The notes beneath the pieces are model-generated. The model had not been told where the DNA came from, did not search any database, and saw only the letters and a list, made by a program, of their open reading frames with translations. Below are positions 811 through 6,354 of a DNA stretch of 35,193 bases, piece by piece. This stretch comes from Roseofilum capinflatum BLCC-M114 (GTDB taxonomy: Bacteria > Cyanobacteriota > Cyanobacteriia > Cyanobacteriales > Desertifilaceae), in the NCBI RefSeq assembly GCF_030068505.1, contig NZ_JAQOSO010000044.1:1-35193 (forward strand), read 5' to 3'. How positions within the stretch are numbered: the stretch's first letter is position 1; each line of letters begins with the position of its first letter. A program made the translations under genes and the position numbers.

Positions 811-1326
811 TTAGGATGGATTGGGGGCAGTATAGCCTTGCAGACTTTCCGGTTCAAAGGCACGAATGATCGTGGTAGATTCTTCAATTAAACCACTCGA
901 ACCTTGTACCACAATTAGATACTTTCCTTCTCGTAAGCGGTTGCGATAGGGGAGAGCATCGCCACCCCCACTAATTAAGCCGACACCACCGCCGACAAAT
1001 AAAGCTCCTAGTCCACCAGAACCCGCCCCTAAAATACCCCCAACAATATGGTTGCCGACTTCTCCAGCCCAGGCAAAAGTATTGAGTCCAGAAATCACGC
1101 TAAAGGTAACGCCACCAAAAAAACCAAAGGGGATAAGCCATGTTGCCATCAGTCGAGCTTGTTTTTGAGCGGCTTGGTTGGGGTTAATCAGGCCAAACTC
1201 ATCGGCACTTTTGTATCCTTTGCCTAAGATGTTGACTTGGGCAGTGGGTAAGCCTGCTTTTTCTAAGGCACAGTAGACTCCTTCAGCTTGAATGCGATCG
1301 CGCAATACGGCAACTAGATAATTCAT
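811..1326 (-). CDS. Hypothetical glycine-rich membrane-associated protein
   Basis: I do not recognise a characterised homologue. The chosen start is the ATG at 1326, preceded by a GAGAG-type ribosome-binding site, giving 171 residues; an in-frame GTG at 1350 would add eight. The N-terminal third (YLVAVLRDRIQAEGVYCALE...) looks like a small alpha/beta fold of the kind seen in YflT-type stress proteins. The middle is hydrophobic, with glycine-zipper-like runs (GGILGAGSGGLGALFVGGG) that could insert in a membrane. The C-terminus (GKYLIVVQGSSGLIEES) returns to a soluble beta-alpha pattern. It precedes the GNAT gene by 9 nt. The YflT comparison is an impression, not an established assignment. Confidence 0.7.
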   Translation of the reverse strand: MNYLVAVLRDRIQAEGVYCALEKAGLPTAQVNILGKGYKSADEFGLINPNQAAQKQARLMATWLIPFGFFGGVTFSVISGLNTFAWAGEVGNHIVGGILGAGSGGLGALFVGGGVGLISGGGDALPYRNRLREGKYLIVVQGSSGLIEESTTIIRAFEPESLQGYTAPNPS

Positions 1327-1368
1327 CGGCTCTCGATAATTGGACTTCACAGCATGATTAAAGCTCTT

Positions 1369-1419
1369 CCTATGATACCGGTTTACGCCTAAGCTAGTAG
1401 TCGCGATTAACGAAAATTA
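1369..1419 (+). repeat. Partial duplicate of the dapL leader and 5' end, upstream of xisH
   Basis: Bases 1369-1400 match 2166-2197 exactly over 32 bp. Bases 1400-1419 match 2223-2242, the first codons of dapL, with one mismatch. The 25 bases between these two blocks in the dapL copy (2198-2222, including the start-codon area) are missing here. This upstream block is therefore a deleted copy of the dapL leader, separated from the intact copy by the xisHI pair. TATGAT (1371-1376) inside the repeat could be a -10 element. Confidence 0.85.
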
Positions 1420-1428
1420 GCGCAGGTG

Positions 1429-1854
1429 ATGCCCTCTAGAGATGCCATTCATGCTCAGGTTAAAGTTGCCCTACAACAAGAAGGGTGGACAATTACCGAC
1501 GATCCCTATGTTATCTCCTATGGGGAGCGATTTTTATTTGTAGACTTAGGAATAAGCGGACGGTTTATCGGAGCCGAGCGCGGGAGTTACCGCATTGCCA
1601 TAGAGATTAAGGAACTGCGGGGCAAATCGCCTATTGCTGAACTCGAACAAGCCATGGGTCAATATACCCTGTATCGACTACTGTTAGCACAGGTTGACCC
1701 AGAGCGATCGCTCTATCTAGCCGTCAGTACCCAAGTGTACAATGAGCTATTTCAAGAGCCAATTGGCAAACTGGTTATCCGAGACTTGCCACTGAATCTA
1801 TTGATTGTAGATGTGGAAACTGTAGAGGTAAAACAATGGATACCGCAACTCTAA
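1429..1854 (+). CDS. xisH: XisH family protein (element-excision factor homologue)
   Basis: The protein has 141 residues from the ATG at 1429; a GTG directly before it at 1426 is the alternative start. The sequence follows the XisH family: WTITDDPYVI near the N-terminus, then a PD-(D/E)XK-like core with D39 and E59-x-K61 (IAIEIKEL), then a Q-rich helix and LYLAV. In Anabaena, XisH and XisI are needed with the recombinase XisF for fdxN-element excision. Most cyanobacterial homologues, like this one, have no recombinase nearby, and their role is unknown. It overlaps xisI by 19 nt, which implies translational coupling. The pair lies between duplicated copies of the dapL leader. Confidence 0.92.
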   Translation: MPSRDAIHAQVKVALQQEGWTITDDPYVISYGERFLFVDLGISGRFIGAERGSYRIAIEIKELRGKSPIAELEQAMGQYTLYRLLLAQVDPERSLYLAVSTQVYNELFQEPIGKLVIRDLPLNLLIVDVETVEVKQWIPQL

Positions 1855-2156
1855 GAGAGAAAGTCAAACAAGTGATTAGCCAATATGCCCACTTAACCCC
1901 CTCTCATGGGCAAATTCGGCTAGATACTGTTTTTGATGACACCCAAAATCGCTATGCCCTGATGCAAACTGGCTGGAGCCAAGGGCGCAGAGTGCGAGGT
2001 AACTTGATCTACATTACCCTGCAAGATGAGCGTATTTATCTGGAATATGACGGTATGGAACAGGGAATAACTGAGGACTTGCACAATCTGGGTGTACCTT
2101 CTGAGCAGATTGTCCTGGCTTTTTTGCCAGAATCTCCCTTGGCTCTGGCGGGATAA
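1836..2156 (+). CDS. xisI: XisI family protein (element-excision factor homologue)
   Basis: This 106-residue protein has the XisI hallmarks: a helical N-terminus ending in VISQYA, a central VFDDTQNRYALMQTGW segment, then RGNLIYITLQDERIYLEYDG and a C-terminal GVPSEQIVLAFLP. The family is a small alpha/beta protein that accompanies XisH in near-fixed order, as here. It starts 19 nt inside xisH, so the two were probably acquired as one cassette. The nuclease-like XisH beside a small overlapping partner has invited comparison with toxin-antitoxin pairs; that is a hypothesis, not something the sequence shows. The reading frame is intact. It ends just before the second copy of the dapL-leader repeat. 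Confidence 0.92.
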   Translation: MDTATLREKVKQVISQYAHLTPSHGQIRLDTVFDDTQNRYALMQTGWSQGRRVRGNLIYITLQDERIYLEYDGMEQGITEDLHNLGVPSEQIVLAFLPESPLALAG

Positions 2157-2165
2157 ATCCTCTTC

Positions 2166-2197
2166 CCTATGATACCGGTTTACGCCTAAGCTAGTAG
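2166..2197 (+). repeat. dapL leader repeat, intact copy
   Basis: This is an exact 32-bp match to 1369-1400. It lies 23 bases before the dapL ATG, in the leader where a promoter would be expected. Near-identical CTCTTCC bases extend the match leftward to 2160, with one indel. Confidence 0.85.
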
Positions 2198-2219
2198 AAA
2201 GAGTCTCAAGAAAGCCACA

Positions 2220-3455
2220 ATGGTCACGATTAACGAAAATTATCTCAAATTGAAGGCGGGTTATTTGTTCCCGGAGATTGCCCGACGGGTGAAGGTGTTT
2301 GCTGAGTCTAATCCGGATGCTCCGATTATTAAGCTGGGAATTGGGGATGTGACGGAACCTTTGCCGGAAGCTTGCCGCACGGCGATGATTAAGGCAGTAG
2401 AGGAAATGGGCGATCGCGCTACATTTAAGGGATATGGCCCAGAACAGGGGTATGCTTGGTTACGGGAAACCATCGCCCGCCAGGACTTTCAAGCGCGAGG
2501 ATGTGAGATTGATGCCTCAGAAATCTTTGTTTCCGATGGCGGCAAGTGCGATACAGGCAATATTCTCGATATTTTCGGCAAGGATAACACCATCGCCGTC
2601 ACCGATCCGGTTTATCCCGTATATGTAGATACTAACGTCATGGCCGGTCATACCGGGCCAGTTAATGATAAGGGCGAATATGGAGGCTTATTCTATCTGC
2701 CGATTACGGCGGAGAATAACTTTACCGCTAAAATACCGGATCAACCCGTTGATCTAATTTACCTCTGTTTCCCCAATAATCCCACGGGGGCAACGGCATC
2801 GAAGGCTGACCTAAAAGCTTGGGTAGACTACGCTAGAGCCAATGGTTCCGTGATTCTCTTTGATGCAGCCTATGAAGCGTTTATTACCGATCCAGAACTG
2901 CCTCATTCCATTTATGAAATTGAAGGGGCTAGAGAATGTGCGATCGAATTTCGTTCCTTCTCGAAAAATGCCGGATTTACGGGAACGCGATGTGCTTATA
3001 CCGTGGTTCCCAAGAGCTTAAAATCCAAGACTGCCGAGGGTACAGAAGTTACCCTCCATCAACTCTGGAATCGTCGTCAATCTACCAAATTTAACGGCGT
3101 TTCCTACATTGTGCAGCGCGGAGCAGAAGCGGTTTATTCCCCAGAAGGACAAAGCCAAATTCAAGGCTTAATCAAGTTTTACCTGGAAAATGCCCAAATT
3201 ATCCGTCAAAAGCTCTCTGAGGCTGGATTAACCGTTTATGGTGGCGTTCATGCTCCCTATATTTGGGTGAAAACGCCCCAAGGATTGTCGAGTTGGGATT
3301 TTTTTGACAAATTGCTTAATTTGTGCTATGTAGTTGGCACTCCTGGCTCAGGATTCGGTGCTGCGGGAGAAGGGTACTTCCGTATCTCGGCCTTCAACAG
3401 TCGAGAAAATGTGGAAGAAGCCATGAATCGCATTACTGCCAATTTCAAGGTCTAA
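2220..3455 (+). CDS. dapL: LL-diaminopimelate aminotransferase
   Basis: DapL is a PLP enzyme that converts tetrahydrodipicolinate directly to LL-2,6-diaminopimelate with glutamate as amino donor. It is the lysine and peptidoglycan precursor route used by cyanobacteria, plants and chlamydiae. The 411 residues are the usual family length. Visible signatures are IGDVTEPLP (41-49), [10 protein letters not shown] (69-78), [10 protein letters not shown] (105-114), [10 protein letters not shown] (186-195), DAAYEAFI (215-222) and the PLP-lysine loop [12 protein letters not shown] (K249). The start at 2220 retains the expected N-terminal [19 protein letters not shown]. The leader carries the 32-bp repeat that also precedes xisH, so xisHI appears to have been inserted at this gene's 5' end without breaking it. 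The stop codon abuts a MITE-like repeat. Confidence 0.97.
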
Positions 3456-3456
3456 C

Positions 3457-3619
3457 ATCAAGTCCGGTTAAATAGATGTCATTGCGATCGGAGGGAAGCA
3501 ATCGCTGCTACAATTAGCGAGATGATCGAGATTGCTTCATTCCACTTCGTTCCACTCGCGCTTCGCGCATACTTCGTAAACGCAATGACTTGTTATAGCT
3601 GATTTAGCGGACATGATAT
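3457..3619. repeat. MITE-like palindromic element, copy 1
   Basis: The element is about 163 bp with no ORF. Terminal inverted segments are ATCAAGTCCGGTTAAA (3457-3472) and TTTAGCGGACATGATAT (3603-3619). Nested inner arms are GTCATTGCG/CGCAATGAC (3478-3486 and 3581-3589) and GAAGCAATC/GATTGCTTC (3495-3503 and 3530-3538). A second copy with the same order lies at 31666-31823. TAACAT occurs at both edges (3453-3458 and 3619-3624) and could be a target duplication. The left edge touches the dapL stop codon. Confidence 0.75.
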
Positions 3620-3637
3620 AACATCCTTAAAAATCCA

Positions 3638-3700
3638 GGGAGCGAGACGCTCCCACTCCAGTCAGATCAACCGATTCCAGGAGTGCGGGCATCTTGCCTG
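3638..3700. repeat. Compound hairpin repeat
   Basis: GGGAGCG/CGCTCCC (3638-3644 and 3648-3654) forms a tight 7-bp stem. It is followed by CACTCC (3654-3659), which pairs with GGAGTG (3680-3685). There is no T-run directly after either stem. It resembles dispersed intergenic hairpins of cyanobacteria and may act as an end-of-transcript structure for dapL. Confidence 0.4.
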
Positions 3701-3767
3701 GTTCTCTTTTCCCATTAACTGGATTTGAGATTAGGGCTGACTTTTTTGCCTAGCGTAGGAGCTAGAG

Positions 3768-3790
3768 GTCTTGCACTGCAAGACTTTTTT
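3768..3790 (+). terminator. Candidate rho-independent terminator (+ strand)
   Basis: GTCTTGCA (3768-3775) and TGCAAGAC (3777-3784) form a perfect stem (in practice GTCTTG/CAAGAC with a 5-base loop), followed by six T (3785-3790). It faces rightward, so it could end readthrough from dapL, about 310 nt upstream, before the oppositely oriented tRNA-Phe. Confidence 0.55.
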
Positions 3791-3793
3791 CAA

Positions 3794-3866
<73 letters not shown>

Positions 3867-3966
3867 TTATTTTCAATGCTTAACTAACGTAGCACTAAAT
3901 TCTTGCGGTTGTCAATCCCCTAAAGAGGAAATTTTTAGGGAAAGGCGATCGCCTTCCCCTTCTAAT

Positions 3967-4416
3967 TTAAATCGGGCGTAAGCGAGTTAACTTCAAATTA
4001 AACTGGCCGCCAGACGTTTCCCCAAAGGCGCGTACCCGTACGATATACGTGCCTGACTCAGTAATTCGGGCAAAGAGCAAGGAATTGGTACTGCCATCGG
4101 GCCCATCATCATTTTCAGCCACCGTAGTTCCATCCTCCGCCAGTAGGGTAATAATGGTATCAAACTGATCGGAATACAGATCAATGACCACATTATCGCC
4201 TTCATTCAATTTGACCATATAATCCCGTGCAAACCCTCCTTGGCCAGTAGGAATATCCTTTTGAGAGAGGGTATCGGTAATTTCGTTGGTCGTAGGTAGT
4301 GGTTTGGGATTATAAATTTCTGATTGGGCTTGAGCTACTGTCTGAAGACCGATCGCCATCAACAGGCTGAATACAAAACGAATGCCGCTACCTGGGGTAG
4401 CTATAGAGTTAAGCAT
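3967..4416 (-). CDS. Secreted PPC-domain (pre-peptidase C-terminal) protein
   Basis: This 149-residue protein begins with a short polar stretch, a hydrophobic core (FVFSLLMAIGLQ) and an AQA-type cleavage site near residues 29-31, so it is probably exported. From about residue 65 to 145 it is one PPC-type beta-sandwich. The typical pattern is visible: DYMVKLNEGDNVVIDLYS, then FDTIITLLAEDGT, then ENDDGPDGSTNSLLFARI, then GTYIVRVRAFG. PPC domains usually hang on secreted peptidases and assist export or binding, but here there is no peptidase domain, as in many small cyanobacterial PPC proteins. It lies downstream of the kinase gene on the same strand, 84 nt away. Its substrate or partner is unknown. 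Confidence 0.88.
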   Translation of the reverse strand: MLNSIATPGSGIRFVFSLLMAIGLQTVAQAQSEIYNPKPLPTTNEITDTLSQKDIPTGQGGFARDYMVKLNEGDNVVIDLYSDQFDTIITLLAEDGTTVAENDDGPDGSTNSLLFARITESGTYIVRVRAFGETSGGQFNLKLTRLRPI

Positions 4417-4500
4417 GAAACATCAAGTCAACTGATGGGTGTTCTGTGAACATCTTAAACTAGGCTTTCCGGTAATCGCCAGTGTTCTCTAGGTTTCTAA

Positions 4501-6354
4501 TTAGGTTTCAATATTACCGCGACGAGCGATCGCACACCGGGGAGCAATCCACCAGGGGCCACCCCCATTCCCCCGCAGGTCGCACTGTTCTATCGGCCCT
4601 GCCCCATTAGAAGCCACATGAATGCCTTGTTTTTGGTTGCCATATAACCGGCAGTGCTTCAAACTCAGATTACTCTGTTTGTTGATTTGCACGCCTCGGC
4701 CGCCATTTTGGAAAATCTCGCAGAAGGAGGCGCTACCGTGACCCTGTTCAGACACCAAAATCCCCTCGCGACTCATTTGGGAAACCTGGCAATGTTCTAG
4801 ATTTGCTTCCCCATGGCGATCGATTTTAATCCCAATCCTCTGGCCAGAAATCTGACAAAATTCTAAGCTAGAGCGGCTATATTGGGTAATCCAAACCCCA
4901 TATTGGGGGTCTCCCGTCATCTCACATCGACGTAGGGTAGCATAAGTATTTTTTCCTTTTATATAAACATTGGCCAGTCCCATGGCGTGAATCTTGCACT
5001 CTTCCAGGGTGAGGTTGCCATGGGTAATAGAGATAGCGTAGGGGCTATGGAGCTGTTGACCCATGAAGCGACCGAGGGAGTCGGCCCGGTGAATTTGCGT
5101 CCAGTTGCGATAGTGAAACGTTACCCCCCGAATCAGAGCGCGATAATGCGACCCATCGCTGACGCGATCGCCGACCATCCGCACACAAGGAGCCAATTGA
5201 CTCTCAATAATAATATCGTCCTTATTGCCTTCACCGATAATTTGCAACGGTTTATCGATCCGTAGACTTTCGGCATAAAAACCGGCACGGACTTTAATGA
5301 TGCTATAGGGAAGAGCATTTTTAATCGCCTCATTCAGAGTGCGATAGTTCGCCGCCCCCAGTTTAGCCACCACCAGGGGCGGTGCGTCCAGAAACTCTGG
5401 ATCTTCAGTTTCCGGTTGGGTAAGAGTAGGTAGACCATAGGGACTACTGTTGAGATCGTTGAGGGCTTCTTGGGCCGATTGATAGCGATCGCCGATCGCC
5501 ACCTGAGTCAATTTATCCAACACTCCCCCCAGATTCTCACTGATAGGATTGCCCTCTAATTGACTTTCCCGCCATAACCAGCGCCCTTGACTCGGCTCGT
5601 AGAGGCGATCGGGTTCCACGCCTGTCAACAGACATAAACAAGTCACTCCCAAACTATACAAGTCACTAGCCGGATAGGTTTTACCCGTCAGCATTTGTTC
5701 CAAAGGGGCGTACCCTTGCGTCCCAATGCCCACCGTACCCGTCTGCGCGATCAGAGTTTGCGCCAGTTGCTTAGAAATACCAAAATCAATCAGCACAAAC
5801 CCTTCCGGAACCGATTCTAATCCCTGTCGGAGCATCAAGTTTGCCGGTTTAATATCCCGGTGGATAATCTGCCGGTTATGGATAAATTGCAGCACCGGTA
5901 GCAGTCCTTGCAGTAAGTTGCGAATTTGAGCTTCTGTAAACGGCCCATTTTGCTGCAAACATTGGGCTAAATTCTGCCCAGGGATAAACTCTTGCACTAA
6001 ATAGCGTTGGTTCTCTTCCTGGAAAAAGTCCCATAAACTGGGGATTTGCGGATGGGTATCCAGATGGGTGAGCCGTTCAGCTTCGAGTTCAAACAGGGCG
6101 ATCGCCTTTTCATAAAGCTCAGGGTTCCCTTTCACCTCCGGCAGGGGAACCAAGTGTTTAATCGCACATTTTGCCTCCCCCCGTTCCCGATCCAGAGCTA
6201 AATAGGTACGAGCGCATCCACTGGTATTAGAGATTAATTGATTCACCTGATAACGTCCTTTGAGTAACCCCAAAGCTGACCCACAATTGAGACAAAATTG
6301 GGTTTGGGGCGGATTTTGGGGTTGGGAACACTCCGGGTTGAGGCAGTAGCTCAT
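4501..6354 (-). CDS. Zinc-ribbon Ser/Thr protein kinase fused to a right-handed beta-helix
   Basis: This is a 617-residue three-part protein. (1) Residues 1-26 form a four-cysteine zinc ribbon (C4, C9, C21, C24). (2) Residues 34 to about 300 are a Hanks-type kinase: AIK lysine K66, catalytic loop HRDIKPANL (H165, D167), metal-binding DFG 190-192, activation segment GTQGYAPLEQ (211-220) and DLYSLG (231-236). The glycine loop (ISNTSGCART) is non-canonical, as is common in cyanobacterial four-Cys kinases. (3) Residues about 325-610 form a parallel beta-helix of the pectin-lyase/CASH type, starting AKLGAANYRTLNEAIKNA, with repeated strands such as GILVSEQGHGSASFCEIF. I see no membrane segment, so it is probably cytosolic. 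The beta-helix may bind a polysaccharide, cell-envelope or protein partner; this is inference. Confidence 0.93.
   Translation of the reverse strand: MSYCLNPECSQPQNPPQTQFCLNCGSALGLLKGRYQVNQLISNTSGCARTYLALDRERGEAKCAIKHLVPLPEVKGNPELYEKAIALFELEAERLTHLDTHPQIPSLWDFFQEENQRYLVQEFIPGQNLAQCLQQNGPFTEAQIRNLLQGLLPVLQFIHNRQIIHRDIKPANLMLRQGLESVPEGFVLIDFGISKQLAQTLIAQTGTVGIGTQGYAPLEQMLTGKTYPASDLYSLGVTCLCLLTGVEPDRLYEPSQGRWLWRESQLEGNPISENLGGVLDKLTQVAIGDRYQSAQEALNDLNSSPYGLPTLTQPETEDPEFLDAPPLVVAKLGAANYRTLNEAIKNALPYSIIKVRAGFYAESLRIDKPLQIIGEGNKDDIIIESQLAPCVRMVGDRVSDGSHYRALIRGVTFHYRNWTQIHRADSLGRFMGQQLHSPYAISITHGNLTLEECKIHAMGLANVYIKGKNTYATLRRCEMTGDPQYGVWITQYSRSSLEFCQISGQRIGIKIDRHGEANLEHCQVSQMSREGILVSEQGHGSASFCEIFQNGGRGVQINKQSNLSLKHCRLYGNQKQGIHVASNGAGPIEQCDLRGNGGGPWWIAPRCAIARRGNIET

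What the first reader, a model, noticed from the sequence alone, without database searches (positions are those of the whole stretch)
1364..2242. xisHI cassette lies between two copies of the dapL leader
Seen directly: 1369-1400 equals 2166-2197 over 32 bp, and 1400-1419 equals the first codons of dapL (2223-2242) with one mismatch. The upstream copy lacks the 25 bases between these blocks. The upstream gene ends in non-matching sequence. This is a genomic scar: either xisHI entered with a duplication of the target leader, or a tandem duplication was later filled by the cassette. It may also have handed the dapL promoter to xisHI. XisH/XisI pairs are widespread but their mobility is unexplained, so a precise insertion scar is informative.
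Basis: partly seen in the sequence, partly recalled or inferred. Interest (0 to 1): 0.75.

Follow-up and report, generated by a model that had tools for sequence, protein, structure and literature searches.

The report
Gene pair between duplicated gene starts
In a marine cyanobacterium a two-gene cassette sits between two copies of the start of the gene dapL, a scar left when the cassette was added, and some other copies of such cassettes carry the same kind of scar made from whichever gene they lie beside.

Summary
Two related Roseofilum genomes have the same arrangement with a complete upstream copy (about 90 bp: leader, dapL start codon, about ten codons). The window copy is that copy minus 25 bases. 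The most distant relative, G004, has the empty site: one leader, no xisHI. The leader is not a dispersed repeat. So xisHI lies in an insertion-duplication scar.

The scar is not unique. Three more xisHI insertions in the genus have empty sites and direct duplications of a neighbouring gene end (radA 181-187 bp, cheB 63-75 bp, an unnamed ORF 76 bp). Other families show more, without empty sites checked. Lengths vary, no shared insert ends were seen, and no recombinase lies between the dapL copies. One xisHI insertion has no duplication, and PIN-toxin pairs show the same scar. It is neither a fixed signature of xisHI nor transposon-like.

Best mechanism, inferred: homology-anchored capture, most simply one crossover between a resident gene end and donor DNA carrying the cassette joined to that gene end. 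Unresolved: in two relatives dapL lies elsewhere and a decayed leader stayed behind, so the order of events is open. Promoter hand-over is plausible but untested.

The parts
811..1350 (-). Divergent neighbour (hypothetical, 179 aa), left flank of the filled, empty and decayed versions of the site
   Evidence: no Pfam family
1364..1419 (+). Upstream copy: dapL leader plus remnant of the first dapL codons, lacking 25 bases after 1400 that include the start codon
   Evidence: complete in G003 and G005
1429..1854 (+). xisH (ATG at 1429; the ORF list starts at GTG 1426)
   Evidence: PF08814, 158.2 bits
1836..2156 (+). xisI, overlapping the end of xisH
   Evidence: PF08869, 95.9 bits
2160..2248 (+). 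Downstream copy: leader, dapL start codon and about ten codons
   Evidence: PF00155; 82-97% identical homologues in relatives

Best explanation
The ancestral site was hypothetical gene - leader - dapL. A xisHI cassette was then added in a way that duplicated about 90 bp (leader, start codon, about ten codons): the upstream copy leads into xisH, the downstream copy keeps dapL whole. The most likely route is homology-anchored capture: donor DNA holding xisHI joined to a dapL 5' end recombined with the resident dapL end, either as a circle by a single crossover or as a linear piece with homology at one end and illegitimate joining at the other. Later the window lineage lost 25 bp of the upstream copy. 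Shown: both copies, the empty site, the shared filled site, recurrence at other loci. Inferred: the recombination route and any borrowing of expression signals.
For: Empty site with one leader in G004; filled site in G000, G003 and G005, overlapping by 87 bp on the empty sequence (35 bp for the shortened window copy). Same anatomy with empty sites at radA (181-187 bp), cheB (63-75 bp) and an unnamed ORF (76 bp). Lengths vary, the duplicated piece is the end of one neighbouring gene, and the ends of the inserts printed for eight sites look unrelated by eye. Strong flank duplication at 15 of 83 xisHI units in Roseofilum and 6 of 67 elsewhere, against 13 of 593 local positions and 7 of 1777 generic positions. 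In E. coli, single crossovers with partly degraded plasmid circles gave target-gene duplications, 109-950 bp in 14 sequenced clones (PMC3240628, passages). Insertion without duplication (G000:C117, replacing 36 to about 200 bases) fits one-end homology with illegitimate joining.
Against: No donor with xisHI directly before dapL and no upstream copy was noticed among the 110 dapL loci, which looked only for copies of the dapL start. DNA uptake by Roseofilum was not examined. In G001 and G002 the leader exists twice without xisHI between, so the duplication may be older than the cassette. In PMC3240628 true homology-facilitated illegitimate recombination gave deletions, not duplications, and was very rare. 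Junction microhomology cannot be judged, because the alignments absorb it into the repeat. Only four clean events with empty sites were found.
Confidence: 0.5

Rival explanations
1. Staggered break repair: offset nicks tens to hundreds of bases apart, perhaps made by XisH, open the target; the cassette is ligated in and fill-in copies the target, giving a long, variable target duplication. xisHI would be a self-propagating nuclease cassette.
For: The structure X - insert - X with a single X at the empty site is formally a target duplication. XisH is called a likely endonuclease in PMC4853749 (passages). xisHI is present in many copies per genome.
Against: The same scar surrounds PIN-type pairs and, at a dapL start in G014, an unrelated 115-aa ORF. 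An insertion without duplication exists. No shared target motif was seen by eye among the eight sites printed.
Confidence: 0.14
2. dapL is what moved. The leader-dapL unit was copied or relocated, a leader remnant stayed at the hypothetical gene, and xisHI came to lie between remnant and unit.
For: In G001 and G002 the hypothetical gene is followed by a decayed leader without dapL or xisHI, while leader-dapL lies behind ilvC. In the pairwise comparisons the homology ends at about the dapL stop codon, except between G001 and G002 (G003 could hardly be judged, as its contig ends about 250 bases further on).
Against: The most distant relative, G004, has hypothetical gene - leader - dapL intact. 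At radA and cheB the neighbouring gene is whole on one side of the cassette and the scar is still there. Homology also ends at or near the stop codon of radA and ilvC, so this does not single out dapL.
Confidence: 0.16
3. A plain tandem duplication of the leader arose first and xisHI entered between the copies later.
For: Not excluded by the state of G001 and G002.
Against: It needs two independent events at each of the four loci with empty sites; the empty sites compared there have one copy.
Confidence: 0.12
4. Ordinary dispersed repeat or chance similarity.
For: At some xisHI loci the flank match looks like a dispersed or palindromic repeat (L090, L109, L302; judged from the sequences).
Against: The dapL leader is confined to dapL and the hypothetical gene in six genomes and includes dapL codons.
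Confidence: 0.02

Closest known systems
Single-crossover integration and homology-facilitated illegitimate recombination (PMC3240628, passages read)
   Same: Insert beside a partly duplicated target gene, duplication length variable, no dedicated recombinase; lacZ-end duplications of 109-950 bp in 14 sequenced clones
   Different: There an engineered plasmid in E. coli, and the duplications came from single crossovers while the illegitimate events gave deletions; here natural cassettes, inferred from genome comparison
Modular insertion of effector-immunity pairs at Vibrio cholerae T6SS clusters (PMC5361080, passages read)
   Same: Two-gene modules added beside a conserved anchor, leaving gene-end remnants; the authors propose homology-facilitated illegitimate recombination
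   Different: There the old effector end is displaced downstream; here the anchor gene stays whole and its end is duplicated
XisH-XisI of the Anabaena fdxN element (Ramaswamy 1997 and Hwang 2014, seen only as citations and in passages of other papers)
   Same: Same two protein families
   Different: The fdxN element is excised by the recombinase XisF; here only xisH and xisI were found as ORFs of 60 aa or more between the copies
Transposons with target-site duplication (recalled)
   Same: X - insert - X with a single X when empty
   Different: Lengths vary from 63 to 187 bp among the sites with empty relatives, no shared insert ends seen, no transposase between the dapL copies

Membership tests
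XisH / XisI protein families | Match above the curated Pfam cut-off | tested here: met
   158.2 and 95.9 bits, cut-offs 25
fdxN-type excision system | Recombinase XisF in the same element | tested here: not met
   No ORF of 60 aa or more between the copies besides xisH and xisI; the rest of the genome was not searched for XisF
Transposon / insertion sequence | Target duplication of fixed short length | tested here: not met
   Overlaps of 63-187 bp at four sites, none at G000:C117
Transposon / insertion sequence | Shared terminal sequence of the insert | tested here: not met
   18 bases at each insert end printed for eight sites, compared by eye only
Single-crossover integration | Target-gene end duplicated around the insert, length variable | tested here: met
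Homology-facilitated illegitimate recombination | Insertion coupled with deletion at the target (as described in PMC3240628) | tested here: inconclusive
   Not so at dapL, radA, cheB and the ORF of L155; fits G000:C117
Single crossover or illegitimate recombination | Donor DNA with cassette joined to the anchor gene; dependence on recombination proteins | not testable with these tools
   No donor noticed, which was not a search for donors
Toxin-antitoxin module | Toxicity of one partner relieved by the other | not testable with these tools
   Only indirect: XisI matches outnumber XisH matches in all six genomes; no PADLOC model matched

The most novel reading that the evidence does not exclude
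xisHI is an addiction-like cassette that spreads by duplicating the end of the gene it lands beside: the upstream copy can lend it leader and start signals, the downstream copy keeps the host gene alive, so that entry into an essential gene end is harmless. Gene-end duplication would be a general entry route of such recombinase-free pairs in cyanobacteria, and the repeats would allow clean loss unless the pair is held by selection.
Probability: 0.15. Interest if true: 0.8.

Novelty: new variant of a known kind. Interest (0 to 1): 0.5.

Why it matters
How widespread gene pairs without a recombinase, such as xisHI, enter new sites is open. Empty sites with measurable scars in one genus turn that into a countable question: how long the duplications are, which gene end is copied, and whether cassette types differ. 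The case also shows that xisHI can enter at the very start of a biosynthetic gene and leave that gene whole.

Tried and rejected
Naked-cassette mobility. Pairs of xisHI units at different places often lose homology at or near the xisH start and the xisI stop. I first read this as a precisely bounded mobile unit. Rejected as specific: leader-dapL, radA and ilvC also lose homology at or near their stop codons between Roseofilum genomes, and the pair L104/L135 proved to be related to one rearranged locus.

Long duplication as a rule. Rejected: 14 loci without a clear duplication were looked up in relatives and nine were compared in detail. G000:C117 is an insertion (or loss) that replaces 36 to about 200 bases without duplication. 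At G000:C32 two of three relatives keep the last 37 bases of xisI, so those are deletions. The rest were partial deletions or larger rearrangements.

xisHI specificity. Rejected: 6 of 25 PIN-domain loci passed the threshold against 0 of 27 acetyltransferase loci (30 loci fetched for each, 5 and 3 dropped as too short). Of the six, only L353/L351 (one locus in two genomes) and L371 (59 bp) look clean; L349 is a repeated sequence, L370 low complexity, and L373 holds xisH sequence.

What the 15 of 83 contain (my sorting). dapL three times (one event), radA, cheB and the ORF of L155 are clean; L106 is ambiguous; L100/L151 are xisI-tail repeats; L108 and L140 twice look like array spacers; L088 was not resolved; L090 and L109 look like a dispersed repeat. 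With strict counting the contrast is not significant: 5 of 64 against 0 of 27, p 0.16; for the second set 6 of 67 against 1 of 67 local positions, p 0.06. The broad contrasts are significant (15 of 83 against 13 of 593, p 7e-8; 6 of 67 against 7 of 1777, p 3e-6), but related loci are not independent (all). With shifted windows the counts are 14 of 64 and 7 of 60.

Concerted evolution of the two dapL copies. Only hinted (shared variants in G005), weak in the tree; not claimed. Microhomology at the junctions: not testable, since the repeat was extended to the first mismatch. A gene tree of the six genomes is unrooted with G004 on a long branch, so I use it only for distance.

Full report
What is there. 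The window (G000, contig 44) carries, left to right, an acetyltransferase and a hypothetical gene on the minus strand, then a leader copy, xisH, xisI, a second leader copy and dapL. The repeat is as described: 32 of 32 and 19 of 20 bases. Of 1386 mismatched flank pairs of xisHI loci, 99% score at most 27.5; the window pair scores 33.5, the complete versions in two relatives 91 and 83.

The scar in relatives. Six genomes of the genus were held and compared. G003 and G005 have the same order with a complete upstream copy: leader, dapL start codon and about ten codons, then the start of xisH. In G003 the fragment reads [10 protein letters not shown] and its stop codon overlaps the xisH start (TAATG); in G005 it reads on past the xisH start and stops just inside it. 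In the window 25 bases including the start codon of the fragment are gone. In G003 xisH is frameshifted after about codon 28, so the pair is not intact everywhere. G004, the most distant (dapL DNA identity 77.6-79.5% to the others), has the empty site. G001 and G002 have a decayed leader beside the hypothetical gene, its start codon changed to ATA, with neither xisHI nor dapL there; their leader-dapL lies behind ilvC. Homology of leader-dapL between genomes ends at about the dapL stop codon except between G001 and G002.

Is it repeated elsewhere. I compared left and right flanks of 83 scorable xisHI units of the genus (86 found in the stretches I fetched) and of 67 units from other genera and families. 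Strong duplications: 15 of 83 and 6 of 67. Controls: 13 of 593 positions near the same Roseofilum loci, 1 of 67 near the second set, and 7 of 1777 in loci around dapL of many cyanobacteria. Many of the 15 are related or trivial; see Tried and rejected. A comparison of fetched loci for inserts against empty sequences gave 126 rows, mostly xisHI units or arrays compared with each other, which I did not all classify. Clean long overlaps are at dapL (87 bp), radA (181-187), cheB (63-75) and an unnamed ORF (76). Some rows without xisHI overlap by 14 bases or less (for example L103, L137, L151, or none at L122 and L133). At the four clean loci the insert ends 0 to about 40 bases behind the xisI stop and begins about 3 to 136 bases before xisH. 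In other genera, L324 has 279 bp made of the leader and 5' end of the downstream gene, ending 13 bases before xisH, the same anatomy as in the window, with the second copy about 166 bases behind xisI; L277 (95 bp) and L297/L265 (82 and 71 bp) copy gene 3' ends; L299 has 42 bp; L302 is palindromic. L272/L296 have 112 bp further out. Empty sites were not sought for these.

Not only xisHI. At radA in G000 a third copy of the radA end follows a PIN-domain gene and a weak MazE-like partner below the Pfam cut-off; in G001 remnants of both pairs lie between two copies in the other order. In L353 a 257-bp gene end brackets a PIN-type pair (116 bp in L351). Among 110 dapL loci (at least two of them the same site fetched twice, 30 with only 1500 bases or fewer upstream), the dapL start was found duplicated upstream in Roseofilum, in G014 around an unrelated 115-aa ORF with a HutP match below cut-off, and in degenerate form in L258.

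How it probably arose. The duplicated piece at the clean loci is the end of one neighbouring gene, its length varies, the printed insert ends look unrelated, no recombinase lies between the dapL copies, and an insertion without duplication exists. That fits homology-anchored capture better than transposition. In E. coli single crossovers with partly degraded plasmid circles gave target-gene duplications of 109-950 bp, while true homology-facilitated illegitimate recombination gave deletions and was rare (PMC3240628, passages). A model of the second kind was proposed for effector-immunity pairs in Vibrio (PMC5361080, passages). In the passages seen, neither paper deals with xisHI. The route remains an inference.

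Literature seen. 14 papers hold both words XisH and XisI (listing); passages of four were read. One maps a xisH transcription start 33 bp before its start codon in Lyngbya, so at least one xisHI pair has a promoter of its own. The structural paper by Hwang and colleagues is not held. Searches for XisH with toxin-antitoxin or nuclease terms and for target duplication or empty site with toxin-antitoxin listed seven entries in all, none of which, by title and start of abstract, describes this scar; most subscription journals are not in the library.

Verdict. A confirmed insertion-duplication scar, recurrent but not universal at xisHI and shared with PIN-type pairs.

Noticed in passing
L097 (G000:C96) 3065-5361 and L169 (G001:C79): Three copies of the radA 3' end alternate with xisHI and a PIN-type pair; in G001 remnants of both pairs lie in the opposite order between two copies.
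   Followed up: partly
L022 (G014), upstream of dapL: Separate duplication of the dapL leader and first codons around an unrelated 115-aa ORF on the other strand.
   Followed up: partly
L258, about 920 bases before dapL: Degenerate copy of the dapL start; what lies between was not examined.
   Followed up: no
six Roseofilum genomes: XisI matches outnumber XisH matches in every genome (36 against 22 in G000, fragments included), so solitary xisI sequences seem common.
   Followed up: no
L100, L151, L158 upstream of xisH: Apparent remnant of a xisI 3' end directly before a xisHI unit, as if an earlier unit had been overwritten (read from the sequences).
   Followed up: partly
G000:C92, L088 and L089: Two nearly identical xisHI units (99% where aligned) about 7.4 kb apart, each with an in-frame stop in xisH.
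   Followed up: no
window 3794-3866: tRNA-Phe on the minus strand shortly behind dapL, in the flank that differs from the relatives.
   Followed up: no
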